From positions 1 through 44,420 of the IMG/VR virus record IMGVR_UViG_3300033143_001396: a stretch of DNA of 44,420 bases. The stretch is one strand, 5' to 3'. Position numbers and translations under genes: made by a program. This DNA comes from a virus. This document shows, piece by piece, positions 5,996 through 37,817 of this stretch (the first letter of the stretch is position 1; the number at the start of each line of letters is the position of its first letter). The notes beneath the pieces are model-generated. The model was not told the origin of the DNA. It did no database searches and saw only the letters and a list, made by a program, of their open reading frames with translations.

Positions 5996-6276
5996 TCTTT
6001 ATTCGCGAACTCTTCGTATGCTTTGATGAAACGTGGGTCATTTCCGTCTGCCATTTCATATGAAATGATGTTATCATTCAACATCGAACGGAATCCATCT
6101 GCGACCAAGTCATACGCGACTGTTACATCTGGGTTTGGTTTTCTGTCTGTGCCTTCTTTCTTCTCAGGCAGCAAGTCAGAGTTTAGTGTACAGAACATTT
6201 CACGTTCATCGCCGTTCTTCTTAACGAATACGGCACGCACTGGTCCTTCGACCAACATCTCTTTCAATGATTTCAT
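5992..6276 (-). CDS. SH3-barrel WYL_2-like protein with a capsid-targeting-like N-terminus
   Basis: The 94-aa protein contains VRAVFVKKNGDEREMFCTLN (residues 13-32), typical of the phage WYL_2 Sm/SH3-like barrel family of unknown function. It begins MKSLKEMLVEG, which resembles the T4 capsid-targeting peptide with a possible protease cut after VE. First gene after promoter 6321-6349. Confidence 0.7.
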   Translation of the reverse strand: MKSLKEMLVEGPVRAVFVKKNGDEREMFCTLNSDLLPEKKEGTDRKPNPDVTVAYDLVADGFRSMLNDNIISYEMADGNDPRFIKAYEEFANKE

Positions 6277-8563: not shown

Positions 8564-8995
8564 TTATTCTCCGTTATCTAATTTGGTGTACTTATCCACA
8601 ATAATGCCTTGGGATTTAAGAAATTCTTCATCGGTCTGCGATTCAATATGTTCATAAACGATTCTGATAATGCCTGATTGTACAATCATCTTAGAACATT
8701 CGATATTCGGATAGTTGGTAGTGTATAATGTTGAACCATCAGATGATTCGCCGGTCATGGCCAATCGCAGAATAGCATTGGTAGTAGAGTGTATAACGGT
8801 GTCCTTTAGATTGCCGCGTTCGTCTTCACAATCGTTTACCATACCTTTCGGTTGGCCATTGTATCCCGCAGCAACAATGTTTCTGTCTCTAACAATTACA
8901 GAACCATGTTTGTACTCCTCACAATAAGACATTTCTGCGAATCTCTCAGCAATGTCCATAAAGAGGTCGTCATATCGTTGTCTAGTTTCCATCAT
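8564..8995 (-). CDS. dCMP/cytidine-deaminase-like protein lacking catalytic residues
   Basis: Overall similar to phage dCMP deaminases: HGSVIVRDRNIVAAGYNG (residues 30-47), DCEDERGN and a QSGIIRIVY strand. However, the zinc/catalytic motif HAE is HST (His69-Ser70-Thr71), so the proton-shuttling Glu is gone. The second motif PCxxC is PNxxC (Asn97, Cys100), so one zinc ligand is lost. I read both changes directly from the DNA. It is therefore probably not a deaminase; it may bind a nucleotide or a protein. It overlaps the Acb1-like gene by 4 bases. Confidence 0.8.
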   Translation of the reverse strand: MMETRQRYDDLFMDIAERFAEMSYCEEYKHGSVIVRDRNIVAAGYNGQPKGMVNDCEDERGNLKDTVIHSTTNAILRLAMTGESSDGSTLYTTNYPNIECSKMIVQSGIIRIVYEHIESQTDEEFLKSQGIIVDKYTKLDNGE

Positions 8996-9468
8996 TTACT
9001 CCACGAAAGATCAAGGTCTTCCATATATTCTTTTCTTAGTTGTATAAAGGCAGCGAATCTAGGCAGTGTTGTGATATCAAAGTCACCAACGTTATATGAT
9101 AACGTCACATGAGGTTTATATTCATCAAAGTCATAGGTTGCGCCATGAGCATCCATCAGTTCTTGGTGTCTGTCAGTCATCCATTGTGACTCAACCTCCA
9201 TCACCAGTGCGTTCTCCCCGTCTTTATTAGGCCACACATCAAATCCCTTGAAGACTGCTTGTTCTTCGATAGGACCTAAAGGGACGTAATTTGGGAGATG
9301 TTTTCTTGAGAACAACAATGTAGAATGAAAGTCATCAACACCCATAGTAGATGGAATCTTGTGTGTCTTAATGAACCATATCAAATCCTTTATAGTATCC
9401 CATGAGAATCTAATACCTGCGTATGTTCCTTTCTGTTCCTCTGTGAGGAATTCCTTTACTGTCTTCAT
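8992..9468 (-). CDS. acb1: Acb1-like 2H phosphoesterase (anti-CBASS)
   Basis: Resembles T4 gene 57B product Acb1, which cleaves the cyclic oligonucleotide signals of CBASS. Two HxT motifs, H48-S-T50 in FHSTLLFS and H120-V-T122 in YKPHVTLSY, form the 2H active site, with the family block HGATYDFDEYKPH before the second. The ATG at 9468 is chosen over an upstream TTG because it gives the N-terminus MKTVKEFLTEE, a capsid-targeting-like peptide that other proteins in this window share. No strong ribosome site precedes it. Confidence 0.85.
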   Translation of the reverse strand: MKTVKEFLTEEQKGTYAGIRFSWDTIKDLIWFIKTHKIPSTMGVDDFHSTLLFSRKHLPNYVPLGPIEEQAVFKGFDVWPNKDGENALVMEVESQWMTDRHQELMDAHGATYDFDEYKPHVTLSYNVGDFDITTLPRFAAFIQLRKEYMEDLDLSWSK

Positions 9469-15402: not shown

Positions 15403-16467
15403 CTAAACCTTTCTCCACTGATTAAATTTAGATAATCCCATTAAACCACTGAAAGCATTAGAGATTAAATATTCTGTTATTTTTTCTGGCGACCAATGAT
15501 GATTCAATACAATATCATTGATATCTTCTCCAGTCTTAAATTTCTTGTTCCATAGTACTACTTTATGGCCGGATTGTAAAGACTTTTTCACTTTATCTAC
15601 GATTGCCGTGTTTCTGGCGTCATTATCATACACCATGATGGCATCAGGGAACAAATCCATATACGACTCCAGATTGGAACCAGTGGCAGCGATGGCATTG
15701 TTCACGAATAGAGAGTTGAGTGGTCCTTCGAGAAGGAGGATTGGTTTGGATTCGTCCACGGTGTCTAATCCGTAGATTTTAGGCATCTCATCATCAATTT
15801 TGATAGTGATATACTTTGCTTTTGATTTAGGATTGAATGAACGACCTTGCATTGCGAACATCTTACCTTCCTTATCAAAGAACGGTATGACCAGTCTTGG
15901 TGTGTCGTACTTTGTTGATTCAAAGGAACCACGTTTACAGAAGTTTGCGTAATCTTTGAACTTGTTTGTGTAGTATAGTCTATCGAGATATGGTTCAAGG
16001 CCTCTTTCACGACAATATATTTTTGCTGGGTGATTATCATCAAGTCCAGATACTTTACGAACAAAGTTGTCTACCAGTAGATGATTGTATGTCTTATCAG
16101 ATGTGAAGTCTAGGGCATGAGACACAAATGTTGGTTTCTGGTTCGCGAATACAGAATCATCGTCTTCTTTTATTGTTACTCTTTTCTTTGGAGCTCCGAA
16201 TGACTCCTTGACGTATTCATTATATAGTGTATGGTCAATCTTCTTTAGGAAGGCACCAAACGGTAGAGATTCATTACATCTATAACAACCAGAGAACACC
16301 TGTCCTTTATATATTTGGAAGTTGCCTCTAGTTACGTCAAGTTTATCCTTAGAGTCCCCACATATAGGGCATCGAAATGCCCATACGTCTTTCTTGACCT
16401 TATGGAACTTCTCCAGTTTATGCGAAATCTTGTGTATATACTGGGTGTCTAGGAAAATGTCGCTCAT
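15403..16467 (-). CDS. DNA primase, T4 gp61 type
   Basis: Makes RNA primers on the lagging strand with the gp41-type helicase. An N-terminal zinc finger (CPIC at 33-36, CYRC at 61-64) is followed by a Toprim domain with ILLLEGPLNSLF and VYDNDARN carrying the acidic residues, and GEDINDIV near the end. Length 354 aa is close to T4 gp61. Its start lies near the point where coding switches strand. The helicase is 11 kb away. Confidence 0.88.
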   Translation of the reverse strand: MSDIFLDTQYIHKISHKLEKFHKVKKDVWAFRCPICGDSKDKLDVTRGNFQIYKGQVFSGCYRCNESLPFGAFLKKIDHTLYNEYVKESFGAPKKRVTIKEDDDSVFANQKPTFVSHALDFTSDKTYNHLLVDNFVRKVSGLDDNHPAKIYCRERGLEPYLDRLYYTNKFKDYANFCKRGSFESTKYDTPRLVIPFFDKEGKMFAMQGRSFNPKSKAKYITIKIDDEMPKIYGLDTVDESKPILLLEGPLNSLFVNNAIAATGSNLESYMDLFPDAIMVYDNDARNTAIVDKVKKSLQSGHKVVLWNKKFKTGEDINDIVLNHHWSPEKITEYLISNAFSGLMGLSKFNQWRKV

Positions 16468-16496
16468 AATGTAGTAATAAATAAATTCAAGTAGTA

Positions 16497-16700
16497 TTAG
16501 TTATGTTTGGAGTAATTGCTTAATCGCGCTCCATCTTGAAACCCAGAGGATTTAAAATGAAGATGTTCTATATATTTTGTGTGGCCACATTTGTTACACT
16601 TAACTACATGGTGGGACTCAGTTTTGATAATGTTTCCACACTCACAAATAACAGTGTTAGTTATAACACCCTTATCAACACCAATAGACTTTAATATCAT
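16497..16700 (-). CDS. zinc-ribbon protein (67 aa)
   Basis: Start MILKSIGVDKG has GGAG 6 bases upstream. CECG and CNKCG form a zinc ribbon. Its ATG shares the palindrome CATG with the ATG of the divergent gene on the other strand, so the two reading frames abut at their first codons. Confidence 0.7.
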   Translation of the reverse strand: MILKSIGVDKGVITNTVICECGNIIKTESHHVVKCNKCGHTKYIEHLHFKSSGFQDGARLSNYSKHN

Positions 16701-17097
16701 GTTTAACTCCGATAATTTTGAAAAACCATTAAACAGTAACACATATCTTATATATGCCGCGAAGAACTATCACAATAAGTTTTGTAACGGCCTTGATGAA
16801 TTCACACAGGATATCAAAACTCTATCTTCAATCAAAAGATCGTTGAGAAAGTATTCTAAAACTGGTGACATTAAGTTACAATTGACACTTAATCACATCA
16901 TTACGTTCAGGAACCTCTTTGGTTCAATACAAGCTGGACGTATATTATTCTATTATTGTGACACTTTTACATATCCGGCGCTCAAGACACTGCTTACTTA
17001 TCTTGAATGCTGTCCTGCGGATATTCCAGAGGTAGATATAGCTAACATCAAGTATGATGATCATTTGATAGACATAATTCGGACTTACAATAAATAA
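16699..17097 (+). CDS. conserved T4-superfamily protein (DUF7207-like, 132 aa)
   Basis: The first plus-strand gene. N-terminus MFNSDNFEKPLNSNTYLIYA and the later LNHIITFRNLFG, then LKTLLTYL, match a short protein conserved in T4-like phages and cyanophages whose role is unknown. No clear ribosome site is seen; the start is chosen by family resemblance. Confidence 0.75.
   Translation: MFNSDNFEKPLNSNTYLIYAAKNYHNKFCNGLDEFTQDIKTLSSIKRSLRKYSKTGDIKLQLTLNHIITFRNLFGSIQAGRILFYYCDTFTYPALKTLLTYLECCPADIPEVDIANIKYDDHLIDIIRTYNK
17089..17096 (+). promoter_or_regulatory. late-promoter-like element
   Basis: AATAAATA 40 bases before the 17136 start, overlapping the end of the previous gene. Confidence 0.4.
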
Positions 17098-17135
17098 TAA
17101 CATTATCAAACACTTTAGTCAAGAGAATATCTAAA

Positions 17136-17654
17136 ATGGGTCTACTTCAATCACTCGCAGCATATAAAATCATAAAAGCTCTTGCCACGCCGTTTCCTAA
17201 ATGGCCTGCATACAAGCTTGGTTTGATTGACGACAAAGGACGTACACTCAGAGAACCAAAGACCAAAGAAGAGAAAGATTCTCTATCTCTATTCGACAGG
17301 GTCATCAAAAACGTAAAGAAACTCATCATGAGAGCTCCTATGGGTTCATTTGCTGTTGGTTCACTCATTGTTGCACTAAAGATTCTCAAAGAAGATGCCG
17401 GGCATGATGTTACTGATATTGTACTTGAATACCTAGATGATAATGGTATTGTTTTACAACTGAATGAGGATGATAACTCAAAAGAACCTTTCTGTCAAGG
17501 CAAATACATAGATAATCTATCAGAGAAGATGTTTATTGTCAAGGAAGAGTTATTCCCTTGTGATATCATCATGGGATGCCCAGTTTACGAGGTTACAGAT
17601 GTGGTTGGTAAAGACGTATTATTCGTCACAAGAGATAATGTAAGAATGGTATGA
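17136..17654 (+). CDS. conserved phage protein, possibly virion-associated (172 aa)
   Basis: The start MGLLQSLAAYKIIKALATPF, then WPAYKLGLIDDKGRTLREP and a helix with RAPMGSFAVGSLIVALKILK, resemble a protein conserved across T4-like phages and often encoded near head genes. The role is not known. It follows a late-type element and heads a run with structural-like composition. Confidence 0.7.
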   Translation: MGLLQSLAAYKIIKALATPFPKWPAYKLGLIDDKGRTLREPKTKEEKDSLSLFDRVIKNVKKLIMRAPMGSFAVGSLIVALKILKEDAGHDVTDIVLEYLDDNGIVLQLNEDDNSKEPFCQGKYIDNLSEKMFIVKEELFPCDIIMGCPVYEVTDVVGKDVLFVTRDNVRMV

Positions 17655-17674
17655 CAAGATCCGTACCATAATTT

Positions 17675-17682
17675 GATAAATA
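17675..17682 (+). promoter_or_regulatory. T4-like late promoter element
   Basis: GATAAATA 27 bases before the 17709 start. Confidence 0.55.
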
Positions 17683-17708
17683 ATAATAAGATTTAATAGG
17701 AATAGTAA

Positions 17709-18299
17709 ATGAAGTCGTTTAAAGATTTTGGCAATCACCAAGAATTCTCTCTGGAGTTGAATAACATTATTGAATTAATGGAATTTGAGAAGATGGGAGT
17801 AGATACCCTAACAGAGGAAACACTGGACGAATTTAAGATGCCTGATATAACCGGCGCATTGAAGACCGCTGGGTTCCATGTAAAGAAGGGACGAGGCCTA
17901 ATGCAAATCATTGCTGCTTCTGGTACCCATATGGCGAAGATTCTATACCATGCTGTGAAGGCAGCGAAAGGTGATGAAGCTTCCGTCGCAGAATTAAAGA
18001 AATTACTAGCAAAGAAAATAACCAAAGAGGACATCATTGATGTTCTTTTAAAGATTGACCAATTAACATTACACGCATTGACTGGTCCTATTCATGCGAT
18101 TGAGGCGATTACAGGTTGGCATATTGCAGCTGCGATTAAGAATGTAAGAAAGGTCAGTGATGATATCAAGCAGAAGGTTGTTAATGTCATTGATACCTTA
18201 AAGACACTCGCAAAGAAGGTTGATAAGGCCATCGCGGCAAAGGTGACCTCTTTGACAACCGATATTTCAAACACATTCAAAGATTATACGGTAGCATAA
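17709..18299 (+). CDS. Ala/Lys-rich helical protein, possible internal head protein (196 aa)
   Basis: Starts MKSFKDFG and continues mostly as lysine- and alanine-rich helices with repeated motifs such as KKVDKAIAAKV. This composition is like T4 internal head or core proteins, but the N-terminus lacks the (L/I)xE cut site of the other candidates here. No domain recognised. Confidence 0.65.
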   Translation: MKSFKDFGNHQEFSLELNNIIELMEFEKMGVDTLTEETLDEFKMPDITGALKTAGFHVKKGRGLMQIIAASGTHMAKILYHAVKAAKGDEASVAELKKLLAKKITKEDIIDVLLKIDQLTLHALTGPIHAIEAITGWHIAAAIKNVRKVSDDIKQKVVNVIDTLKTLAKKVDKAIAAKVTSLTTDISNTFKDYTVA

Positions 18300-18790
18300 T
18301 GAGATCATTTAAGAAATGGGTAGATGATAATGTCATCGGCAATATTGTTTATTATATCGACAAGGGCGATAATGTAGATAAGATTGTTAAAAATATTAAT
18401 AGTCATACTGGTACCATTATGAAGAAGATGTTGAAAAAGTCTTTCTCAAGGATGAAACCAGAAGAGGTTTCAAAAACAACATATGATAAACTAAAACGTA
18501 TCGTATCATTGGTAGAAGAAGCATCAACAACCGTCGCAGGAGTCTCAGGAGGACCCGGTGGTTCGTTTGAACCTCACGGCATGGCATTCGGTAAGCCTTA
18601 CTTTGATGTATGTCAGGACACCTTCTCAGCATGTTACAAAGGTGGCAAAGAACATCGTAAACATTGGTTAAAGAAACTAGGCAATACGGAATCATCACAT
18701 CTGATTCGTAGATGGACGGCAAAGAATCCCGGCAAACAGTTTCTATTGAAGTTGAAAGACCAGAATCAATGGGTTAACGGTAGAGCATAA
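18299..18790 (+). CDS. basic protein of unknown function (163 aa)
   Basis: The start overlaps the previous stop. Basic protein with MRSFKKWVDD at the N-terminus, a central Gly-rich GVSGGPGGSFEP and a basic C-terminal half with HRKHWLKKLG. Operon position suggests a virion component; no family recognised. Confidence 0.7.
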   Translation: MRSFKKWVDDNVIGNIVYYIDKGDNVDKIVKNINSHTGTIMKKMLKKSFSRMKPEEVSKTTYDKLKRIVSLVEEASTTVAGVSGGPGGSFEPHGMAFGKPYFDVCQDTFSACYKGGKEHRKHWLKKLGNTESSHLIRRWTAKNPGKQFLLKLKDQNQWVNGRA

Positions 18791-19113
18791 TGATACTAAA
18801 ACCTAAAACGACCATTTTACTATCAGAGATAGGCATTAGCGCTCTGATGATTGCAAGTTGTTACATATTCCTTGTGGATTACATTAGTCTCAGAGAAGAC
18901 AACGAAATAGCCATGGAATATATTGAAAATTTCAGAACTGACCACGGTTCAATGAAAATAGAACTTCAAAATAAAATTAAGATAGTTGAACACAGCTCAA
19001 CGAAATTAAAAAATAGTAAATTACTATACGATGGAAGAATAAGTCGAATCAAGGAACTAGAAGAAAGAATAAAATCACTTGAGAAGACGGCACTTTCTAA
19101 TGACGGAACTTAA
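18790..19113 (+). CDS. membrane-anchored coiled-coil protein (107 aa)
   Basis: One transmembrane segment at about residues 12-30, then a coiled-coil tail (KELEERIKSLEK). The layout is that of an inner-membrane spanin, but no outer-membrane lipoprotein partner is visible beside it. It overlaps the next membrane coiled-coil gene by 14 bases. Confidence 0.65.
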   Translation: MILKPKTTILLSEIGISALMIASCYIFLVDYISLREDNEIAMEYIENFRTDHGSMKIELQNKIKIVEHSSTKLKNSKLLYDGRISRIKELEERIKSLEKTALSNDGT

Positions 19114-19678
19114 TAAAAACGATAAAGCGAACGACAACAATCAACAAAATATTTTCAATGACTTGCAAAAGCAAATTAAAGTATTAGAAGATGAACTCGT
19201 TGCGGTCTCAAAAGGAGATAGCGTATCAACCAAAGATGTTGTGAAAATAAATCGTCTTGTTAAATCTATATGGTCTCTGGCCAGTATCTTTCTCGCCTTG
19301 GTGTCCTCAACATCCTATATATACATAGAATCAAAAAGAGCACTAGATGCGATTGAAGAAAATAACACAGCAATCGTTGAAATAAGAAAAGAAGACAAAA
19401 AGGTATTAGAACTTGTCAAAAAAGCTTTAGAAAAGAACGACGAAGAATTATCAAAAATAATCAATATCAAAGTTGATGATAGATTATCAGATTTGGTAAA
19501 GATAACAAAAGAGGCCGCCGACGATGCGAAGGATTCCAGAGAGTTGGTTGAGGAATCTGCTCAGGCAATGGCAGGAATGAATGACTCTGTGAGAGCTAAC
19601 TATAAAGAACTTCTTAGATATAAGAAAGAGGTTACTGTTAGACTACAAAGAATCGAAAAGAAGTTAAAAGCTAAATAA
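19100..19678 (+). CDS. membrane-anchored coiled-coil protein (192 aa)
   Basis: Start MTELNKNDKANDNNQQ, then a first helix, one transmembrane segment near residues 60-78 and a long coiled coil ending RLQRIEKKLKAK. It pairs with the preceding membrane coiled-coil gene. Role unknown; envelope or lysis function possible. Confidence 0.65.
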   Translation: MTELNKNDKANDNNQQNIFNDLQKQIKVLEDELVAVSKGDSVSTKDVVKINRLVKSIWSLASIFLALVSSTSYIYIESKRALDAIEENNTAIVEIRKEDKKVLELVKKALEKNDEELSKIINIKVDDRLSDLVKITKEAADDAKDSRELVEESAQAMAGMNDSVRANYKELLRYKKEVTVRLQRIEKKLKAK

Positions 19679-19681
19679 ATA
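19674..19681 (+). promoter_or_regulatory. late-promoter-like element
   Basis: AATAAATA 33 bases before the secreted-protein gene at 19715. Confidence 0.4.
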
Positions 19682-19714
19682 CACAAAATAAGAATCGACA
19701 AATGAGAATCGAGA

Positions 19715-20170
19715 ATGAATTTATTAAAAGCAATAACTTTATGTTTTGTGATAAGTTTAGCTGGCAAACCATCAATAACACAGGCCGAGTTTTCCATACA
19801 ACAGAACGAACTGGTAGGACCAGTACCTACTAAAGATACAAATTCATTCATCACTCAATATGAACTATATAACATATTCAGTTTTAATGAGACAGAAAGT
19901 TGGAACGGAGGTCGTATTGTGGTTGTAATGTTCGACATACACTCTAGGGAACACAAGAATTTTGTAAAAGATACCATTCTGTATCCTTGGAAGTCCTATA
20001 TGAAGTACGCTGAACGTAGATACAAGTCAGCTGATACTATTATTGTTAAGAACTATAGCGAGATGATAGAAGCAATCACATACAACTTGGGTGCTATTGG
20101 TTACTTGCCAAAAGGTAGTGTGTTGTACAATAGCAAACATAACGGAATTGTAGAGGTGAAGATTAGATAA
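19715..20170 (+). CDS. secreted protein resembling a PstS-type binding domain (151 aa)
   Basis: A signal peptide (LLKAITLCFVISLAG...TQA) precedes about 125 residues. These follow the small COG0226 PstS-like layout: ELYNIFSFNETESWNGGRIV, a middle ILYPWKSYMKYAERRYK and GAIGYLPKGSVL. Known members bind phosphate in the periplasm. The match is to layout rather than strong motifs, so binding is inference. Confidence 0.6.
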   Translation: MNLLKAITLCFVISLAGKPSITQAEFSIQQNELVGPVPTKDTNSFITQYELYNIFSFNETESWNGGRIVVVMFDIHSREHKNFVKDTILYPWKSYMKYAERRYKSADTIIVKNYSEMIEAITYNLGAIGYLPKGSVLYNSKHNGIVEVKIR

Positions 20171-20871
20171 TGCCCGATTCATACATATATAAAATGGCGG
20201 ATAAACACAACGTAACTGTGGACAGAACAGAAGAGTTGTGGTTCAAAGCAAGAAAACTTGCTGCAGAGGCAGGTCACAAAGACGAATATGATTACATTAC
20301 AGGAATATTTAAGAAAATGATAGGCGAAGAGATGAACGAAGATTACTGGTCAGACTTTCCAGAAAAGATTGACGATAAGAAAGTACAACTATTCTTGGGT
20401 CGTATGCAACCTATCCATAAGGGACACGATGCAATCATTAAGATGATGAAGAATCCAGTCGTTGTTCTTGTAAAAGGAAAGGAGTCTTCAAAGGACAAGT
20501 CAAGGAATCCACTGGACGCGAAGTATCAGACCAAGTTGATACACAAACTCAACCCTAGAGCGATGGTCATTGTGGCGAAAACTGGTTACATTCCAGACAC
20601 TATCTCATTACTACGTGACCAAGGACTTGATGTTGATTTAGTATTAGCAGGCAACGACCGCATTGGTTCATATAAGAAACAGATTGATTCAGCGAATAAG
20701 AAACTTGATGACTGGCAACAAATGGAAGTTAAGTATAAGGAAACGCCTAGAATTACATCAGCTACAGATGTTCGTAACGCTATTAAGAGTGATGACAGAG
20801 AGACATTTGAAAAGCTTGTCCCTAAGAAACTTCATTCTGAATGGGACAAACTACGCAAACTGGTTAAGTAA
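20170..20871 (+). CDS. cytidylyltransferase-like nucleotidyltransferase (NMNAT-type HxGH) with N-terminal helical domain
   Basis: FLGRMQPIHKGHDAII (residues 75-90) has the HxGH signature of the cytidylyltransferase superfamily. The late RITSATDVRNAI matches the ISxTxVR phosphate-binding motif, as in NMN adenylyltransferases. The first 65 residues form a helical segment (YKMADKHNV...DYITGIFKKM) seen at the start of several phage virion-linked proteins. Substrate could be NMN or another nucleotide. Last gene of the plus block, convergent with the next. Confidence 0.75.
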   Translation: MPDSYIYKMADKHNVTVDRTEELWFKARKLAAEAGHKDEYDYITGIFKKMIGEEMNEDYWSDFPEKIDDKKVQLFLGRMQPIHKGHDAIIKMMKNPVVVLVKGKESSKDKSRNPLDAKYQTKLIHKLNPRAMVIVAKTGYIPDTISLLRDQGLDVDLVLAGNDRIGSYKKQIDSANKKLDDWQQMEVKYKETPRITSATDVRNAIKSDDRETFEKLVPKKLHSEWDKLRKLVK

Positions 20872-21924
20872 TTAGAACTTAATATTGTTATCGAAAGAAA
20901 CTAAAGGTTCTACTTGTAGAAAGTCCATAAGGTTCTTGTAACTTTTCTTTACCCAAGATATAATCTTCATTATAATGGACTTAATGAATGATTTTGCCTT
21001 GTTGAATATATCTGCGATTACGCCTTCTGTTAATGCATACTCTGGAATATCATCGATATCTTCTTGGAGTTTATCCACAATAAGACCTACAACAGACCAG
21101 TAACGGTAGTTCCCTGTCTTCTGTTTCTTTCCATCAATAACTTTCTTCTCTGAACCAGACTTGAAGCGTACAGACACCTTCATCTTCTTTGCGATAGATG
21201 AAACGTATGCCTTATCATTAACAGGTACGTGATGAATCTTTGAACCATCCCATGTTACAACAAGGAAACTTGAACAAGCACCATCGTTGCCACCAAACTT
21301 AACATCTCCTGACATTGCTTCATACGCAAATGCATCTCTGAACGATTGGTTGGTTGAGAAAACCTTGGTCAACTCTCTCATCAGGTCTTTATGTACAGCA
21401 TCGGCCTGTTTAACAAGTTCGTCTTTGCCGCTTTTTATTGCTGCGCGTAGATTCCCTTTTGTTACTCCTGCTGGAGACAACTGGTCAAATCCTTTTCTCA
21501 AGGTATCAGAAACTTTCTTATCGACACCCTTTAATTGATTCGCAGCGGCGTAGAATGTTGCGCGGGCCTCATTACGACCACCTGACATTAATTGTGCTGC
21601 TTGTCCCGTCTTGAGAGATATCTTATCCGAGCCGATGACGATATCAGTCTTAGGAGTCTTTGTGCCGCCTGGAACCTTACCTTCTGGCCAGTATGTTGAC
21701 CACTCTTTAGTAACAGGCATAGTGGAGGCGCCAAGAGAAGAGGCTTTGCCTGACTCGCCTTTACTCTTCAACTCAGCAACAATCTTTTCAACGTTCTCTT
21801 GTGTGATACGTTTATCTGTTATATCACTAGGAATCTCTTGACCATTCCATACCGCGATAATGGCATTCTCCATCTGTATACCAGGAGATGCTGCTTCGTT
21901 AATATATTCTTTGAAACCTTTCAT
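20872..21924 (-). CDS. capsid-targeted protein with PD-(D/E)xK-nuclease-like core (350 aa)
   Basis: Begins MKGFKEYINEAASPG, a T4-like capsid-targeting peptide with a cut site after INE. Residues 95-120 read KTDIVIGSDKISLKTGQAAQ, which looks like the Asp...(S)xLK core of restriction-endonuclease folds. A second possible cut site LTE-G lies near residue 301, before a basic amphipathic tail. Nuclease activity is inference from one motif. It is convergent with the plus-strand nucleotidyltransferase and touches the next gene. Confidence 0.6.
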   Translation of the reverse strand: MKGFKEYINEAASPGIQMENAIIAVWNGQEIPSDITDKRITQENVEKIVAELKSKGESGKASSLGASTMPVTKEWSTYWPEGKVPGGTKTPKTDIVIGSDKISLKTGQAAQLMSGGRNEARATFYAAANQLKGVDKKVSDTLRKGFDQLSPAGVTKGNLRAAIKSGKDELVKQADAVHKDLMRELTKVFSTNQSFRDAFAYEAMSGDVKFGGNDGACSSFLVVTWDGSKIHHVPVNDKAYVSSIAKKMKVSVRFKSGSEKKVIDGKKQKTGNYRYWSVVGLIVDKLQEDIDDIPEYALTEGVIADIFNKAKSFIKSIIMKIISWVKKSYKNLMDFLQVEPLVSFDNNIKF

Positions 21925-22208
21925 TATTTACCAACTTTTTTAATGTTCTTATCAATGAATTTTTTAACATCTTGGCGTTTAACTTTGTCTTTGAAAGCAG
22001 GTTCAAAATCATGTTCACCAGTTTTCATATCCAAATATACTGTCCAAATATTGTAATGATTTCCGTTCTCGGCCTTGGCACCTACCAAGTATATATCTCC
22101 CTTCACTTGTCGAACATACTCAACAACATCTGTATCAAATACATTTGACTCAAACCATTTTACATCTTTCTTTATGGATTCGTTCAAGAGTTGTTTTACT
22201 GTTTTCAT
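21924..22208 (-). CDS. small capsid-targeted protein (94 aa)
   Basis: N-terminus MKTVKQLLNESIKKD fits the capsid-targeting peptide with cleavage after LNE. The rest (KGDIYLVGAKAENGNHYNIW) looks like a small beta-rich domain. No family recognised. It overlaps both neighbours by one base. Confidence 0.65.
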   Translation of the reverse strand: MKTVKQLLNESIKKDVKWFESNVFDTDVVEYVRQVKGDIYLVGAKAENGNHYNIWTVYLDMKTGEHDFEPAFKDKVKRQDVKKFIDKNIKKVGK

Positions 22209-23449
22209 TATAGTCTCCAGACCAGATTTGTTATTTGGTTAACAGGCGCGAATACACCAGTGAATTTGAGTAGTTCGCCTTTGTAGAAGAATGTAATGCC
22301 TTCTGTAGGCATAAGATTCTTTATTCCACCAAGAGCATCTAATTTCTTTAGTTGTGCATCAAGCGTCTTTTTCAGACCTTCGTTATCCGAGGCCTTAATC
22401 TTGTTAACCGAATTCCACATATTGTCAGCAATCTTCTGCATAGACTTATCAGGATTAACGGTCATCATTGAAGAGATGGTCTTCATCAACTCTGTACCAA
22501 CACCAAGAAATACATTCTCGATAGGGTGCATCATCTCTTTCCATACCTTCTGCATAGACTTGTCAATCTTTTGAATCCAAGACTTCAACTCTGGTACCAG
22601 TTTATAGATACTAGTGATGGTCACAGACTTGTCGCCATGCGCCCATCTGTTAACCAATGAGGTATGTACATCATCAGGCAACGATGTCTTCTTGATCACG
22701 TTGTTGATTATGTAGTTTCGTTTATATGTAGAAAGTTTATCTGAATTCTTTACACCTTGAGACTTCATAATCTTATTGAGTTTGACAAGGTACTTGTCTG
22801 TACGTTTCTTGTGGTCTTTCATTGCACCAACTTTGACCTTAGATAGACCTTTCATTTCGAAACGCTTTCCTTTGTCCAGACCTTTACCACGTAGAATCTT
22901 CTCAAGATATCTGCCGTCTGATTGGTTCAACTTAGAAATAGGGTTGCCGTCTTCGTCCAGTTCGATAGTGCCGTGGAAACGAATCTCTGATACACCGTAG
23001 TGTACGATGTTCTCATTCTCTGGTACCATAACCTCAATAGAAATCCACTTGTGACCTTCATTGAAGAAATATTCTTTGTCGGCCGGACTAAGTTGTGACA
23101 TTGCATGTGATAGTTCATTCATCACATCAGAGTATGCTGTAAGTAATGCACCACGACCGGAGAACTTGGCAACAATTCCTGCTTTATCCAGTGCGTTCTC
23201 ACCAAAGTTCTTTTGATGACCCTTATTACGAGAGGCGATTAACTTATTGTTTTTCCAAGAGAACATCAGGTTTTGGCCATCGGTTTTCTCTGTGACTTGT
23301 TCAAGTCTACCTTGAAATGCTCTTACAATGATGCCTTTGATTTCGTTGAATGTGAAATCAATATCATATGGATGCGAAAGGTGACCGAAACCACCGCCTT
23401 CTGATAAGGTATGGGTTTCATTGTATTCTTTGAATCTAAGCACACACAA
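22208..23449 (-). CDS. ligase/nucleotidyltransferase-like protein (413 aa)
   Basis: Motif I of the covalent nucleotidyltransferase superfamily, EKTDGQNLMFSW (Lys55), is followed by ASRNKG, then ISIEVMVPENENIVHYG (motif III-like), EGITFFYKGELL (motif IV-like) and KFTG (motif V-like). This layout is that of an RNA or DNA ligase; it may belong to the phage DUF6267 family. The N-terminus RFKEYNETHTLSEGG has a possible head-protease site after LSE. It sits in the group of capsid-targeted genes behind a late element. Confidence 0.65.
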   Translation of the reverse strand: MCVLRFKEYNETHTLSEGGGFGHLSHPYDIDFTFNEIKGIIVRAFQGRLEQVTEKTDGQNLMFSWKNNKLIASRNKGHQKNFGENALDKAGIVAKFSGRGALLTAYSDVMNELSHAMSQLSPADKEYFFNEGHKWISIEVMVPENENIVHYGVSEIRFHGTIELDEDGNPISKLNQSDGRYLEKILRGKGLDKGKRFEMKGLSKVKVGAMKDHKKRTDKYLVKLNKIMKSQGVKNSDKLSTYKRNYIINNVIKKTSLPDDVHTSLVNRWAHGDKSVTITSIYKLVPELKSWIQKIDKSMQKVWKEMMHPIENVFLGVGTELMKTISSMMTVNPDKSMQKIADNMWNSVNKIKASDNEGLKKTLDAQLKKLDALGGIKNLMPTEGITFFYKGELLKFTGVFAPVNQITNLVWRL

Positions 23450-23511
23450 CTCCTATAAATGAATAAAGGCATCGGGGTGGTGGCAACCCCTGAGTACCTT
23501 CCTAATATAGT

Positions 23512-23519
23512 TATTTATG
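23512..23519 (-). promoter_or_regulatory. T4-like late promoter element
   Basis: CATAAATA on the minus strand, 63 bases before the ligase-like gene. Confidence 0.55.
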
Positions 23520-23531
23520 TTATCTTACCGT

Positions 23532-23783
23532 TTACCAACTCGGTCTACACTCATACAACGCTCTTCTAAGTTCTTCTTTGAAGTGTTGTAGTTTATATTC
23601 TTCTACTTCTGTACGGTATTCTGGGTCAATAATCTCATAGTTGTATACCTGTTCGTCATAATAGTCAATTTTTCTATCACATAATTCTCGGCTCAGTGGC
23701 GCGTTACGAACCAGTTCCTTCATCTCTCCAGCAGAGGATGTGTATGAGGTAAATAATAAGATGAATATTGCAATATATTTCAT
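23532..23783 (-). CDS. small secreted protein (83 aa)
   Basis: Signal peptide IAIFILLFTSYTSSAG then about 63 charged residues with two cysteines. Periplasmic. Together with the preceding membrane coiled-coil gene it might form a spanin-like pair, but it has no lipobox. Confidence 0.65.
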   Translation of the reverse strand: MKYIAIFILLFTSYTSSAGEMKELVRNAPLSRELCDRKIDYYDEQVYNYEIIDPEYRTEVEEYKLQHFKEELRRALYECRPSW

Positions 23784-23785
23784 GA

Positions 23786-24160
23786 TTAATGGTCGCCTTG
23801 TAGTCGTTCTATCCTTTTATTTAGTGTTTGTATTTGTAGTTTATACAATTCTACCTCACCAATGGTATCTGCACTACCTAAAAGGGTGTTCAACTTTGAG
23901 ATTTGTGAAGTGAGGTCTTCTATATATGTGGTACGAATAGTCACCGCCTCTTTTTCGAACCTCTCGGTGATGCGTGTTTCCATTGCGGACAGGTCTTTAT
24001 GAGTCACCAACACAGAATCAACAGCTGTAATCATTTTACTACCAAAACCTAAAATGGTAAAGAGAGCTCCTATCACCGCAGCAGTTGTTAGTATAGTTTT
24101 TACTGGGTTTTCTTTGACCTTGGCCAAGAACCCTTCTTTTTCTTGTGTCTTATTAGGCAT
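23786..24160 (-). CDS. membrane-anchored coiled-coil protein (124 aa)
   Basis: A short basic N-terminus, one transmembrane segment near residues 21-43 and a long coiled coil with leucine heptads to the end. Spanin or tail-assembly membrane role possible. A CATAAATA element lies only 6 bases before the ATG. Confidence 0.65.
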   Translation of the reverse strand: MPNKTQEKEGFLAKVKENPVKTILTTAAVIGALFTILGFGSKMITAVDSVLVTHKDLSAMETRITERFEKEAVTIRTTYIEDLTSQISKLNTLLGSADTIGEVELYKLQIQTLNKRIERLQGDH

Positions 24161-24165
24161 AAGAC

Positions 24166-24173
24166 TATTTATG
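24166..24173 (-). promoter_or_regulatory. T4-like late promoter element
   Basis: CATAAATA directly before the 24160 start. Initiation about 6 bases downstream would give an almost leaderless mRNA. Confidence 0.4.
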
Positions 24174-24174
24174 T

Positions 24175-24444
24175 TTATCTAATGAAATCCCAGTAATCCA
24201 TAGGTTCTATACCTCTTGGCATATCATCAATCCAATCATCAAACGCCTGCATTTCCTTTTTAGATGCATGGTCATAAACAATATCCGTAGCTTCTCCCCA
24301 CTCACCATCCTCAAGAGCAACAGATAATTCATGTGAGTCATTTGTTTTCTTAATCTTTTTGATTAGATTAAAAATAATCTTTGGTATATCTTTTTTATCA
24401 GCGCGCTTAACGGCCTCGTTAAGGAATTCTTTTGTTGTTTTCAT
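24175..24444 (-). CDS. small capsid-targeted protein (89 aa)
   Basis: N-terminus MKTTKEFLNEAVKRA is the clearest T4-like capsid-targeting peptide in the window, with cleavage predicted after LNE. The mature part starts basic and ends acidic. Unknown function. Confidence 0.7.
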   Translation of the reverse strand: MKTTKEFLNEAVKRADKKDIPKIIFNLIKKIKKTNDSHELSVALEDGEWGEATDIVYDHASKKEMQAFDDWIDDMPRGIEPMDYWDFIR

Positions 24445-24448
24445 TTAT

Positions 24449-25531
24449 CTACCTTATCATTTGTATGTCGTCTGTATGTATATTATCCAAAGACCATACT
24501 TCAAGGTCCTTTTTTAATCTATCCTCAGAACGAAGTTTTTCCCAACGCTTTACAGATTTCTTTTTCCATATCGATATCATCTCTTCGCTAGATTTACTGA
24601 TATTGTTACAGTAATAGTAATTCTTCTTGGTTGTTATATTAGACTTCGTTTTTATCATATTAGAGAATTCATGGTATTTATCTATATCATGATGTTTTAA
24701 TGAATTCTTTATTGTCCTGATAAGGCCATTAAATCTCTTTGTCTTTACTGAACTTGAGTTGACCGTTATGTTGACAACATGATTACCTTCATTCTCGGAT
24801 TTGATGATAATTGTTAACTTTTTGATAACATCATCAGAAGGGTACATCATCAGGTTTGAATCAGTTCTTACCTTAGACCTCTTTATAATGGGTTTAAGTC
24901 CATCGTATTGAGAAGACTGTTTAATGGAACCATATAGACTGGTCGTTTCGAAGTATTGTATATCAGTGTCATACTTGTTGTTGAAACGGTCTCTTATGTC
25001 TGTAGATGCCGCTATTAGTGCAAGTAGTTTGCCGCCGAGATAGTTAAAACCAAACGGTTGAACCGGCACGATTACGATGCCATTATAGAAGGTACGGTTC
25101 AATTCTTCTGGTTTTATGACATAATCCAACATCGTGTTACGAGGTTTCATATTGATTGTCGGGGAAGACATCTTAATAAAACCTAATAACTTTTTCGTGT
25201 TGTTCTCCCACACCTTAACACACAATGACCGACCCGGAGTGGGCCCGACGACAAACGACGAAACGTATTGTAACTGATTATAATACTCTCTGTTCTCTGG
25301 TGTATACTCTAATCTAATGTCCATATCCATTGGAGACATATCATAATCATTAAAATATATATCAGAATACATGTGATTACCAAAAATGTCATAGGATTCC
25401 ATATCTAATAACTTGATTCCTTTTCTAATTCTTTGGTATTGTTCTATATCAGTAATATCAGCGTAAGCATCCATTAATATATCATAACACCTAAGTGTGT
25501 TACGTTCGGACAATATTAGTTTATCTACCAT
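24449..25531 (-). CDS. DruA/DUF4338-like protein, paralogue 2 (360 aa)
   Basis: About half identical over its length to the protein encoded at 25852-27060. The core runs GRSLCVKVWENNTKKLLGFI, PEELNRTFYNGIVIVPVQPF, LGGKLLALIAASTDIRDRF, FETTSLYGSIKQSSQYDGLK and KKNYYYCNNI. The order resembles DUF4338, the domain of DruA in the Druantia defence system. It lacks the N-terminal extension of its paralogue. Function in phage unknown. Confidence 0.6.
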   Translation of the reverse strand: MVDKLILSERNTLRCYDILMDAYADITDIEQYQRIRKGIKLLDMESYDIFGNHMYSDIYFNDYDMSPMDMDIRLEYTPENREYYNQLQYVSSFVVGPTPGRSLCVKVWENNTKKLLGFIKMSSPTINMKPRNTMLDYVIKPEELNRTFYNGIVIVPVQPFGFNYLGGKLLALIAASTDIRDRFNNKYDTDIQYFETTSLYGSIKQSSQYDGLKPIIKRSKVRTDSNLMMYPSDDVIKKLTIIIKSENEGNHVVNITVNSSSVKTKRFNGLIRTIKNSLKHHDIDKYHEFSNMIKTKSNITTKKNYYYCNNISKSSEEMISIWKKKSVKRWEKLRSEDRLKKDLEVWSLDNIHTDDIQMIR

Positions 25532-25532
25532 A

Positions 25533-25847
25533 TTAGTAATCAGTGTGTTCTAGGTACCGTTCTTTATGTACTCTTTCGCTAATGATAGTTCCGTCGGTAA
25601 CTCTTGTTATAACAACTTTCTGTTCTTCCTCGACCCATTTTGTATTCAATTGGTAGTATTTCAGTTTGGCCTGTAGTTCTTTCAAGATTTGGTTATAGGT
25701 CTCATCTTCCATATAGTCAGGATAACTTTCAGCAATACGAATCAGGTAGTCGGTAACCTCTTGAAATTCATCATTCTCTTGTGATGTGTATTCCGATATC
25801 TGTTTGCACATCTCATACACATCATCTCTGTTCATTATATCTTTCAT
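25533..25847 (-). CDS. hypothetical acidic protein (104 aa)
   Basis: Lies between the two DruA-like paralogues, packed within 5 bases of each. Helical acidic first half, then a beta-like segment with VVITRVTDGTIIS. No family recognised; position suggests it works with the paralogues. Confidence 0.7.
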   Translation of the reverse strand: MKDIMNRDDVYEMCKQISEYTSQENDEFQEVTDYLIRIAESYPDYMEDETYNQILKELQAKLKYYQLNTKWVEEEQKVVITRVTDGTIISERVHKERYLEHTDY

Positions 25848-25851
25848 AGTA

Positions 25852-27060
25852 TTACCTTATCATCTGAATTTTGTCACCAAGAACCGTATCTAGATCCCAA
25901 ATCTCAAGTTCTGTACGAATTCTATCATCGGCTGCAAGATTGTCATATCGTCTTTGTGCCTTGCGTTTCCACCAAACAACCATTTCTTCAACGCTCTTAT
26001 TAATGTTGTTGCAGTAATAGTAATTCTTTTTGGTAGTAATCTCCTTCTTCACAGCAAGGAACTCTTTCAAGTGGTCGTGTTTCTCCATATCATGTACCTT
26101 TAGAGAAGCATATAGACGCGAGAACATACCGTTCATTCGTTTCAACTTGACAGAACCACTATTTGCCTCTACGGCGTGTTGACCATTATTCTCGCTCTTG
26201 AAGATTAACGCCATCTTTCCGAGAACTTCATCGGATGGGTACATCATAAGATTTGAATCTGTTTGTGCCTTACAACGGCGAATCATAGGTTTCAGACCGT
26301 CATACTGTGAAGACTGTTTGATTGATCCATATAAGCTGGTTGTTTCAAATGTCTGAATGTCAGTACCATATTTCTTATTGAACATATCACGTACATCAGT
26401 TGAAGCAGCGATTAACGCCATCAGTTTACCACCAAGGGCATTATAACCGAATGGTTGTACAGGTACAAGAATGATACCGTTATAGAACGTGCGATTCAAT
26501 TCTTCGGGTTCAACGATTCTATCCATCATCACATTACGAGGTTTCATATTGAGAGTAGGTGAACCCAACTTCATAAATCCAAGTGTCTTGCCTGTGTTCG
26601 CCTCAACAGCGCGTAGGTGCAAGGTACGACCCGGTGACGGTACAATCGCCATAGAGGACACTACTTGTATCTGTTCATAGAAATCTCTTGAGGAGAGTTC
26701 TTCCACGCGGATTTCCATATCATCTGGACGCATATCATAGTCATTAAACAGAATATCGTCATACCATTCCGTACCATCGATAGACTGTGAAGAACCGGTC
26801 TTCATCAACATCTCAAGTTTACGGAATCTCTGATATGATTCAATGTCGTGAAAGTTTGAGTAGTAGTCAATAAGAAGTTTATAACAGGCAATTGCCTTAT
26901 CCTTAGGGAGAATCAACATCTCGCCTTCTTTTCTATCAGATTCGAATAACGCCTGTGGTTTTTCTGGTTGGTCCGGTTCTTTGTCCGGACGTTTGAACTT
27001 TCCTACTGTACTCTCTTTCTCAACGGCAAGGTCTTCGCCGAATAAATCTTGTGAACTCAT
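25852..27060 (-). CDS. DruA/DUF4338-like protein, paralogue 1 (402 aa)
   Basis: Start MSSQDLFGEDL is chosen because GGGA precedes it. A charged 50-residue extension leads into the same core as its paralogue: GRTLHLRAVEANTGKTLGFM, PEELNRTFYNGIILVPVQPF, LGGKLMALIAASTDVRDMF, FETTSLYGSIKQSSQYDGLK, KKNYYYCNNI. The layout parallels DUF4338/DruA (RD...L..vvNN.RFLI.P...LaskvL...ETFVD). Driven by promoter 27087-27115, close to helicase and recombinase genes, so a DNA-metabolism role is plausible. Confidence 0.6.
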   Translation of the reverse strand: MSSQDLFGEDLAVEKESTVGKFKRPDKEPDQPEKPQALFESDRKEGEMLILPKDKAIACYKLLIDYYSNFHDIESYQRFRKLEMLMKTGSSQSIDGTEWYDDILFNDYDMRPDDMEIRVEELSSRDFYEQIQVVSSMAIVPSPGRTLHLRAVEANTGKTLGFMKLGSPTLNMKPRNVMMDRIVEPEELNRTFYNGIILVPVQPFGYNALGGKLMALIAASTDVRDMFNKKYGTDIQTFETTSLYGSIKQSSQYDGLKPMIRRCKAQTDSNLMMYPSDEVLGKMALIFKSENNGQHAVEANSGSVKLKRMNGMFSRLYASLKVHDMEKHDHLKEFLAVKKEITTKKNYYYCNNINKSVEEMVVWWKRKAQRRYDNLAADDRIRTELEIWDLDTVLGDKIQMIR

Positions 27061-27086
27061 AATATTTCCCATAATCAATTTATACC

Positions 27087-27115
27087 ATTATATAGTAAGC
27101 GAACGTATTTATCAA
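27087..27115 (-). promoter_or_regulatory. sigma70-type early promoter
   Basis: TTGATA, 17 bases, TATAAT followed by GG on the minus strand, ahead of the DruA-like operon. Confidence 0.75.
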
Positions 27116-27366
27116 GACATTCTTCGTTCAAACTCTGGAAAAGATGTTTTTCCGAAACCAGTAAACTTGTAATCTCTATGAAATGCGATCTTTGCTCTTT
27201 TGGTCATAGGTATAACAAGTTTCTCCATATGAAACGCCGGATTGAATCCTGGTTCCTCGGATGTGAACTCCTGTTCGGCCTCATTAGGTCGTAACAAATA
27301 AAATGCCACGACCGGAACCGTGTGGAGTTGATTAATCTGTTTTTTAAACATATCATATAGTGTCAT
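27112..27366 (-). CDS. hypothetical protein (84 aa)
   Basis: Small soluble protein just downstream of the helicase gene, with basic C-terminal RDYKFTGFGK. No family recognised. Confidence 0.65.
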   Translation of the reverse strand: MTLYDMFKKQINQLHTVPVVAFYLLRPNEAEQEFTSEEPGFNPAFHMEKLVIPMTKRAKIAFHRDYKFTGFGKTSFPEFERRMS

Positions 27367-27374
27367 AATATCTC

Positions 27375-28808
27375 CTAAACTATAAAGTCATCAAAAGGAT
27401 TTCCGTCCTTCTTATTATCACCGAACATCAATTCCTGTCCAGCACCAAATGTTGGTTTATCCGCTATGGTTTTCCCATCAGTAGTTGAGGCACCCATCAT
27501 CGTACCGGCAGTATCATCAAGGTCATAGAATCGCATCTGTTTGAAATCAACACCACACATAAACTTATTGGTGCTGGATATATCATAGAAACGGTTCTTC
27601 AACTGTTTGAACATCACCTTGCCCTGTTCGCGTAGCTCTTCTGTAGAAATCATACCAAAGAAAGTATCAACAGTATGTAATAGACCGGCTGATTCTGATA
27701 CATCAGACATTTCCATATCAGAGGCATTTAGTCCACCACGATTAACCTGTGTAGCACTAACAATAGGACAATTATTCTCAATTGCGAATCCACGAAGTTC
27801 TTCTGCGATACTCTTAACAAGTGTGTACGAGTTTGCGCCTTTTGCTGCACGACTTGAAGAACAAATATTAAGGTAATCGATAAAGATAATATCAGGCACA
27901 AAGTTCTGTTTGGTCTTTAGTTCTCTAACAAGATGTCTAAAGTGACCAACATGTGCCGATGTGGTAGGATATTCCTTAATCATCAATCGACCAGCGCACT
28001 TCTCTTTTACATCTTCGACCTGTTTGAGATACTTGTCTCTATCGATGCCGTGTAGTTTATTAAGGTCGACCTCTAAGAGATTGGCGTCGATACGTTCACC
28101 AATTCTTTCTTCGGCCAACTCTAATGAGATGTATAGAACATTCTTGCCCTGTAAATACAACTGACTACCGATATGAATCATAATGGCAGACTTACCAGAA
28201 CCGGCTCCGCCCATGAAAACATTCAATGTCTTGTCAACAAAACCACCACGGGTTACCTTATCAAGATAGTGTAGACCAGTGGCCAATCTATCTTCTTTCA
28301 GGTGTAACAAATCGTAACGCGCATCAGCATCATTGATATAGTCGTGACCTACAGAACTATCAAACGAAACACTCAAGGCATCTTGTAGCAGTTCAGGTAT
28401 GGCACCTTTGTCCATATCTTTCTTCTCACCATTGATAATGGCGATAGCAGTTTCAACAGACCTGTGAACGGCACGTTCAGAACAGAATTTCTCCGTTTCG
28501 TCCCTTAACCATTCTGAATTAGGTTTTTCTTCCGTAATGATTCTATACGAATCGAGTCTTGTTACTATTTCTTTGTATTCATCTTCGGTAATATTTTTAC
28601 GGTCACCTACCTGTACAATGATAGACTCTATTGTAGGTACATCATTATACTTTTCAAAGAAGCCTTTGTATTCTTCAAAGATAACCCTATATTGATCATC
28701 AGAGTAATATTCATCCTTTAGATACGGTAGAACATCTCTTACATAGGCGCTATCAACGAATAGATTCTTGAATAGTACATCTTCAAAATCTATATCAATC
28801 AATAACAC
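27375..28808 (-). CDS. replicative DNA helicase, DnaB/T4 gp41 family
   Basis: Unwinds DNA at the phage fork and cooperates with the gp61-type primase. The 477-aa protein has an N-terminal helical domain, a RecA-like domain with Walker A GGAGSGKSA near residue 200, Walker B IIFIDYLNICSS near 305 and ENNCPIVSATQVNRGGL. The start overlaps a small upstream gene by 14 bases. Confidence 0.92.
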   Translation of the reverse strand: MLLIDIDFEDVLFKNLFVDSAYVRDVLPYLKDEYYSDDQYRVIFEEYKGFFEKYNDVPTIESIIVQVGDRKNITEDEYKEIVTRLDSYRIITEEKPNSEWLRDETEKFCSERAVHRSVETAIAIINGEKKDMDKGAIPELLQDALSVSFDSSVGHDYINDADARYDLLHLKEDRLATGLHYLDKVTRGGFVDKTLNVFMGGAGSGKSAIMIHIGSQLYLQGKNVLYISLELAEERIGERIDANLLEVDLNKLHGIDRDKYLKQVEDVKEKCAGRLMIKEYPTTSAHVGHFRHLVRELKTKQNFVPDIIFIDYLNICSSSRAAKGANSYTLVKSIAEELRGFAIENNCPIVSATQVNRGGLNASDMEMSDVSESAGLLHTVDTFFGMISTEELREQGKVMFKQLKNRFYDISSTNKFMCGVDFKQMRFYDLDDTAGTMMGASTTDGKTIADKPTFGAGQELMFGDNKKDGNPFDDFIV

Positions 28809-37742: not shown

Positions 37743-37817
37743 TGGTACGCCGAGAAAGAGTTGAACTTTCGACTCGCATGTTATGAGCATGGTGCTTTGC
37801 CATTAAGCTACCGGCGT
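37743..37817 (-). tRNA. tRNA-Met(CAU)
   Basis: Acceptor ACGCCGG/TCGGCGT, D-arm GCTTAATGGCAAAGC, anticodon loop CTCATAA, T-loop TTCAACT, CCA encoded. Could be elongator Met or a modified Ile tRNA. Confidence 0.88.

What the first reader, a model, noticed from the sequence alone, without database searches (positions are those of the whole stretch)
20872..24444. Cluster of proteins with T4-like capsid-targeting peptides
Three genes here begin MKGFKEYINEA, MKTVKQLLNES and MKTTKEFLNEA, and a fourth has RFKEYNETHTLSEGG. All resemble the T4 internal-protein signal (MKTYQEFIAE) with an (L/I)xE cut site for the head protease. Similar N-termini occur at 5992-6276 and 8992-9468. Such proteins would be packed in the head and injected with the DNA. 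Established part: the T4 signal and protease rule. Inference: that these proteins use it.
Basis: partly seen in the sequence, partly recalled or inferred. Interest (0 to 1): 0.75.

Follow-up and report, generated by a model that had tools for sequence, protein, structure and literature searches.

The report
Phage proteins tagged for head packaging
A T4-like environmental phage carries several unrelated proteins that begin with the same ten-residue address tag T4 uses to load proteins into its head for injection; two of the tagged proteins belong to families of known counter-defence enzymes, which suggests that this phage delivers its countermeasures together with its DNA.

Summary
Genes at 20872-21924, 21924-22208 and 24175-24444 (all minus strand) and the Acb1 gene at 8992-9468 start with a ten-residue T4-type capsid-targeting sequence (CTS): 4 hits against 0.085 expected. 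T4 returns its internal proteins in the same scan; SPO1, which has no gp21, returns none. A 77-kb contig of the same virus adds a tagged S-adenosylmethionine lyase.

Two tests outside the window support the packaging reading. A profile trained only on T4 and this virus ranked all S-CREM2 cyanophage proteins; the top five are all in that phage's published mass-spectrometry virion list, including a tagged SAM lyase of the same Pfam family. The tagged S-SCSM1 NMNAT is virion-detected too. In the 350-aa family (183 relatives in IMG/VR, 21 aligned) the tag varies in sequence and length but keeps [I/L]xE (I/L 21/21, E 19/21). A second LxE is also conserved (E 21/21); the model is disordered at both sites.

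5992-6276 looks like the normal start of a WYL_2 domain. The LSE|GG of 22208-23443 lies in a conserved domain motif.

The CTS is known. The marine extension, and Acb1 and SAM lyase as cargo, are what is new. Packaging in this virus itself is inferred.

The parts
20872..21924 (-). 350-aa cargo candidate (here called P1). Tag residues 1-10 MKGFKEYINE|A; second putative cut L298-T-E300|G before a C-terminal helix. Basic (pI 9.4); possible PD-(D/E)xK-like nuclease core
   Evidence: I/L8 21/21, E10 19/21, E300 21/21 in 21 relatives; AlphaFold model: pLDDT below 50 at 1-10, 291-301 and 346-350; structural match to uncharacterised cyanophage proteins; no PDB relative
21924..22208 (-). 94-aa basic protein of unknown function; tag MKTVKQLLNE|S
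   Evidence: no convincing Pfam or PHROG family
22208..23443 (-). KxDG nucleotidyltransferase/ligase-like protein (GTG start 23443, or TTG 23449); MLRFKEYNETHTLSE|GG, doubtful tag
   Evidence: conserved KxDG, RNKG, E, EG and K motifs; LLxE/MGGAYGH is part of the conserved domain in relatives
24175..24444 (-). 89-aa protein of unknown function; tag MKTTKEFLNE|A
   Evidence: top-scoring start in the window, 25.3; found elsewhere only in the sister contig
8992..9468 (-). Acb1 anti-CBASS phosphodiesterase family, tag MKTVKEFLTE|E outside the domain, HxT motifs at 48 and 120
   Evidence: PF23474, 1.1e-37, domain starts at residue 13; solved Acb1 7T26 aligns from residue 14
5992..6276 (-). WYL_2 (T4 gp31.1 family) protein; its MKSLKEMLVE start is probably native domain sequence, not a tag
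   Evidence: PF10902 aligned from residue 2; Ac42 gp31.1 LKTILSTGLHEVVFTKANGD aligns ungapped
20170..20871 (+). Cytidylyltransferase/NMNAT-like protein without a tag; its tagged cyanophage counterparts are virion proteins
   Evidence: tagged counterparts; PMC3037559, PMC10665884, PMC9602691
17709..18790 (+). Two genes starting MKSFKDFGNHQEF and MRSFKKWVDDNV: possible long-form tags (aromatics at 4 and 7, no LxE at 8-10), unproven
   Evidence: score 9.6 for the first
15403..28808 (.). Locus between primase-like gene (15403-16467) and gp41-like helicase (27375-28808) that holds the cluster; same place as in HTVC008M, Melnitz and Syn9, and as the 41-61 island of T4

Best explanation
At least four proteins in the window (P1 at 20872, the small proteins at 21924 and 24175, and Acb1 at 8992), plus a SAM lyase on the sister contig, carry a T4-type capsid-targeting sequence. 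As the prohead forms, residues 1-10 (mainly positions 4 and 7) would bind the scaffold core. The gp21-type protease would then cut after E10 ([I/L]xE|), leaving the mature protein in the head, and the protein would be injected with the DNA. P1 would also be cut at L-T-E300|G, removing a C-terminal helix, as T4 Alt is cut at both ends. The cargo probably prepares the cell before phage genes are expressed: Acb1 would destroy CBASS cyclic nucleotides and the SAM lyase would deplete SAM, hampering SAM-dependent restriction. Shown here: the tags, their statistics, their conservation in the P1 family, their position outside the domains, and their predictive value for the S-CREM2 virion. Inferred: packaging, cleavage, injection and function in this virus.
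For: Statistics: 4 strict hits at starts against 0.085 expected; T4 internal proteins recovered, SPO1 none. Same determinants as T4 genetics, where residues 4 and 7 target and 8 and 10 process (PMC9026906): across 15 tags residue 7 is F or Y in 14, residue 8 L/I/F and residue 10 E in all. Virion proteomes: a profile trained on T4 and this virus alone ranks 213 S-CREM2 proteins, and the top five are all among the 52 found in the virion (P about 7e-4). These include SAM lyase MKDFDSFLEE, same Pfam family (PF23780) as this virus's tagged MKTKKEFLSE protein. S-SCSM1 NMNAT, virion-detected (PMC9602691), begins MKSFLQFLKE|A. Conservation: in 55 distinct P1 relatives the start sequences and lengths vary but nearly all keep [I/L]xE. 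Structure: the model of P1 is disordered at both predicted cut sites. Domains: Acb1 and DUF6267 domains begin just after the tag. gp21 is present in relatives with P1.
Against: No virion data for this virus, and no gp21 (PF03420) match on either contig. The 21924 and 24175 proteins have no relatives found outside this virus, so conservation of their tags is untested. Position 4 is V or T in three of the four window tags, not aromatic. The Acb1 tag is degenerate or absent in T4 57B and RB49. T4-type late promoters are not clearly enriched. The parts of the S-CREM2 paper read here do not report N-terminal processing. P1 has no known function.
Confidence: 0.77

Rival explanations
1. The similar N-termini are common short amphipathic helices of phage proteins, native to each fold or used for protein-protein contact, and have nothing to do with the head.
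For: Probably true for 5992 (WYL_2) and possibly for the LSE|GG of 22208. Some Acb1 relatives have only loose versions.
Against: Unrelated folds share exact spacing to E10; SPO1 has none; in S-CREM2 the best matches are all virion proteins; the tag lies outside the Acb1 and DUF6267 domains and is disordered in the P1 model.
Confidence: 0.12
2. The tagged proteins are packaged but act in head assembly or DNA compaction (core or scaffold-like roles), not as injected counter-defence.
For: P1, the 94-aa protein and the SAM lyase are basic after the cut, like many internal proteins; P1 is very widely conserved (183 relatives), more like a house-keeping virion part than an accessory.
Against: Acb1 and the 89-aa protein are acidic. 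Acb1 and SAM lyase belong to enzyme families with no structural role that I know of, and S-CREM2 packages a SAM lyase, a kinase and a nucleotidyltransferase.
Confidence: 0.3
3. The tag marks proteins for head entry, but they are only passengers in the virion and do their work in the cell where they are made.
For: T4 57B (Acb1) lacks a proper cut site at its start, so the enzyme can evidently be used without a full tag; low copy numbers could reflect incidental capture.
Against: A dedicated, conserved, cleavable tag would be costly for a passenger; T4 internal proteins are injected and IPI inhibits the gmrSD restriction system (PMC9391042).
Confidence: 0.15

Closest known systems
T4 internal proteins IPI, IPII, IPIII and their capsid-targeting sequence (MKTYQEFIAE)
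   Same: Ten-residue N-terminal sequence, K2, aromatic or hydrophobic 7, I/L8, E10, small residue often at 11; unrelated mature proteins behind one tag
   Different: Mature proteins are not recognisably homologous to the T4 internal proteins; cargo includes Acb1 and SAM lyase families; position 4 is less constant; packaging here not measured
T4 Alt (head-packaged ADP-ribosyltransferase processed at both ends)
   Same: P1 has a conserved LxE site near each end
   Different: No ADP-ribosyltransferase match for P1 in the family searches
Cyanophage S-CREM2 virion-associated enzymes (PMC10665884)
   Same: SAM lyase of the same Pfam family with the same kind of tag; cytidylyltransferase found in the virion
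   Different: The paper's text holds no mention of capsid targeting; the window's own cytidylyltransferase is untagged
Acb1 (T4 57B, solved as 7T26/7T27)
   Same: Acb1 domain and both HxT motifs
   Different: Extra cleavable-looking tag ahead of the domain; T4 57B has only MMEFKDFST
Phage P1 DarA/DarB-type head-packaged anti-restriction proteins
   Same: General strategy of loading counter-defence proteins in the head (from own knowledge)
   Different: Different phage lineage and targeting signal; no homology tested

Membership tests
T4-type CTS-bearing internal head proteins | Signal at the extreme N-terminus, 10-19 residues long | tested here: met
   Start codons and lengths; five exact 10-mers in the window, one of them (5992) probably native domain sequence
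T4-type CTS-bearing internal head proteins | Residues 4 and 7 (targeting) and 8 and 10 (processing) conserved | tested here: met
   position 7 F/Y in 14 of 15, 8 L/I/F and 10 E in 15 of 15; position 4 aromatic in 10 of 15 (weaker)
T4-type CTS-bearing internal head proteins | gp21-type prohead protease (PF03420) in the same genome | tested here: inconclusive
   Not on this fragment or its sister contig, both incomplete; present in G005, HTVC008M and Melnitz, which carry P1
T4-type CTS-bearing internal head proteins | Protein present and N-terminally processed in virions | not testable with these tools
   No virions; tagged proteins of related phages are virion-detected (PMC10665884, PMC9602691), processing not seen reported there
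T4-type CTS-bearing internal head proteins | Mature protein homologous to IPI/IPII/IPIII | tested here: not met
   No match in Pfam or PHROGs; the CTS, not the cargo, is the shared element
Acb1 anti-CBASS nuclease | Acb1 domain with two HxT motifs | tested here: met
   PF23474 E=1.1e-37; 7T26 match 1.2e-22; HST48 and HVT120
S-adenosylmethionine lyase | PF23780 domain above its curated cut-off | tested here: met
   42 bits against 28, sister contig L038:4777-5376:-
PD-(D/E)xK nuclease (for P1) | Recognisable nuclease fold or profile match | tested here: not met
   No Pfam, PDB-sequence or PDB-fold match; only the invariant pattern E19, D94, S103-L-K105, E119 suggests it
WYL_2 (for 5992-6276) | PF10902 domain | tested here: met
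   42 bits against 26.7, from residue 2

The most novel reading that the evidence does not exclude
The T4-type CTS is a portable packaging code across marine and freshwater T4-like phages, by which unrelated counter-defence enzymes, among them an anti-CBASS nuclease and a SAM lyase, are pre-loaded in the head and act the moment DNA enters. The locus between the helicase and primase genes would be a conserved cargo island.
Probability: 0.45. Interest if true: 0.78.

Novelty: new member of a known kind. Interest (0 to 1): 0.62.

Why it matters
If it holds, a ten-residue sequence rule can be used to read off the injected proteome of many uncultured T4-like phages from DNA alone, and to find new counter-defence proteins among unknown genes. 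It would also give the first case I know of in which an anti-CBASS enzyme is delivered with the genome, before CBASS can be triggered by phage replication. The full-text search found a single paper holding both 'capsid targeting' and 'cyanophage', a T4 head review, so the link appears unmade in the held literature; most subscription papers were not searchable.

Tried and rejected
gp21 (PF03420) in the window and sister contig: not found, both are fragments. Late promoter ATAAATA: 13 matches against 14.6 expected overall; 5 against 2.2 expected in intergenic DNA, 32 of 500 shuffles reach it; not conclusive. Function of P1 by fold: no PDB match, best E 0.18; only uncharacterised cyanophage proteins in the viral library. 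A PD-(D/E)xK reading is left as a suggestion. PADLOC: only weak matches, none taken as real. 22208 as a firm CTS case: dropped after 80 relatives showed LLxE/MGGAYGH as a domain motif. 5992 as a CTS case: dropped. Relatives of the 89-aa protein and of the SAM lyase in IMG/VR by single-protein scan: only the same virus.
Full report
WHAT IS THERE. The window is a complete IMG/VR record of 44,420 bases, a fragment of a T4-like virus with UvsX, gp41-like helicase, T4 RNA ligase 1, ribonucleotide reductase and 18 tRNA genes. A second record of 77,279 bases is 99.99% identical over 30 kb and extends it by about 46 kb.

CHANCE. I asked how often a strict T4-like pattern occurs at start codons compared with its density inside proteins. 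The window has 4 hits against 0.085 expected; the gene at 5992 also fits but was lost to an overlapping ORF in my simple gene caller. With a position-specific score the T4 genome returns IPI, IPII, IPIII and gp61.1, while SPO1, which has no gp21, returns nothing. The sister contig adds MKTKKEFLSE|S on a 199-aa protein, which is an S-adenosylmethionine lyase by Pfam (PF23780, 42 bits against a cut-off of 28).

DOES THE TAG PREDICT PACKAGING? Two published virion proteomes allow a test. For cyanophage S-CREM2 the paper lists 52 virion proteins with coordinates (PMC10665884). I translated them and ranked all 213 proteins with a profile trained only on T4 and this virus. The five best are all virion proteins: cytidylyltransferase MKNFSSFLTE, kinase MKRFDAFLTE, ORF13 MKDLHSFLTE, SAM lyase MKDFDSFLEE and ORF136 MQTFSMFFSE (probability about 7e-4 if the ranks were random). 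ORF12, annotated as a Cas9-like nuclease and also found in the virion, has RFASFMAE|A near its start. The S-CREM2 SAM lyase is in the same Pfam family as the one on the sister contig. The authors suggested that these enzymes may be encapsulated; the words 'capsid targeting' do not occur in the paper. In S-SCSM1 the NMNAT is virion-detected (PMC9602691); the match to the S-CREM2 cytidylyltransferase in that genome begins MKSFLQFLKE|A, and I take it to be the NMNAT because the paper gives 39.8% identity between the S-SCSM1 NMNAT and a cyanophage cytidylyltransferase. The cytidylyltransferase cluster T4-GC190 is virion-detected in S-SM1 (PMC3037559); the Syn9 cytidylyltransferase begins MKKFSAFLSE|A.

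THE 350-AA PROTEIN (P1). It has 183 relatives in IMG/VR contigs and matches in HTVC008M (51%) and Melnitz (37%). Among 55 distinct relatives the first residues differ widely and the length before the cut varies, yet nearly all end in [I/L]xE: MKTYRQFINE, MKSFKSYIAE, MLSFNGYTNLSE, MKEFNDLYEQAKFCYKLNE. In 21 aligned members residue 8 is I or L in 21, residue 10 is E in 19, and a second site L-x-E300 has E in 21. The AlphaFold model is confident through most of residues 11-290; the stretches below pLDDT 50 are 1-10, 291-301 and the last five residues. This is what a protein cut at both ends should look like; T4 Alt is processed at both termini (PMC9026906). The core has an invariant E19, D94, S103-L-K105, E119 pattern that recalls PD-(D/E)xK nucleases, but no search supports that assignment, so it stays a suggestion.

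ACB1. The protein at 8992-9468 is Acb1 (PF23474, 1.1e-37) with both HxT motifs. The Pfam domain begins at residue 13 and the solved Acb1 (7T26) aligns from residue 14, so the tag is extra. Some relatives have a plausible tag (Astolliot MNFKEMLPFLIE|G, Citrobacter Ci1 MKTFAQLVE|E); T4 57B and RB49 do not have a proper cut site.

CASES THAT FAIL. 5992-6276 is a WYL_2 protein whose Pfam match starts at residue 2; Ac42 gp31.1 aligns ungapped with the supposed tag and lacks E at the cut. The 22208 protein is a KxDG nucleotidyltransferase-like domain. In relatives, most of them long fusions or open frames with more than 120 residues upstream, the motif LLxE/MGGAYGH precedes the domain; 53 of 80 have a [hydrophobic]xE in the 14 residues before it and the other 27 do not, mostly having Met for Glu. 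The LSE|GG may therefore be domain sequence, although F4 and Y7 do match and T4 IPI has a similarly long propeptide.

LOCUS. The cluster lies between a primase-like gene and the gp41-like helicase (the primase by resemblance to the HTVC008M and S-CREM2 proteins at the same place; no Pfam match). The same interval holds P1 relatives or cytidylyltransferases in HTVC008M, Melnitz and Syn9. In T4 it holds dmd, tifA (61.4) and adfA (61.2), called an anti-TA island (PMC9391042), and gp61.1, which itself begins MKTFKEFIKE|D.

LIMITS. No virion of this virus has been seen, no protease was found on either contig, two of the tagged proteins have no known relatives, and the promoter evidence is inconclusive. 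The gene calls outside annotated records are mechanical. The S-CREM2 test is one phage with five top hits. Statements about restriction-enzyme-like motifs and phage P1 Dar proteins rest on memory.

VERDICT. The targeting sequence is long known from T4. What is added here is support for its validity in marine T4-like phages, tested against published virion data, and its presence on an anti-CBASS enzyme and a SAM lyase.

Noticed in passing
window 5195-5995 (-): Mom-family DNA modification protein (PF25680, E=4.6e-53), another anti-restriction function next to the WYL_2 gene.
   Followed up: no
window 24449-25531 and 25852-27078 (-): Two nearly adjacent proteins with a DruA domain (PF14236) beside the helicase; HTVC008M has a similar-looking protein (I899_gp122) near the same place.
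   Followed up: no
window 115-1547 against sister contig 46561-47318: Cassette swap between two otherwise 99.99% identical genomes: a DUF7873 gene (731-1474) in the window, a different ORF in the sister contig.
   Followed up: partly
T4 NC_000866 18966-19130: gp61.1, of unknown function, begins MKTFKEFIKE|D, a near-perfect CTS, inside the T4 anti-TA island.
   Followed up: partly
L221-L300; L208:2323-4242; L210:1474-4221: KxDG ligase-like domain usually sits at the C-terminus of long proteins; in L208 and L210 these carry an N-terminal cytidylyltransferase-like domain.
   Followed up: partly
L103:7704-10313 (S-CREM2): Virion-detected protein annotated as Cas9-like has RFASFMAE|A about 25 residues from its annotated start, so the start may be called too early; no Pfam match was found.
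   Followed up: no
window 37743-44396 (-): Eighteen tRNA genes clustered at the end of the fragment.
   Followed up: no
L165:5304-6020: A PAP2 (phosphatidic acid phosphatase) domain protein with a long-form tag-like start MKSFKSYISLQEQ next to P1 in a relative.
   Followed up: no
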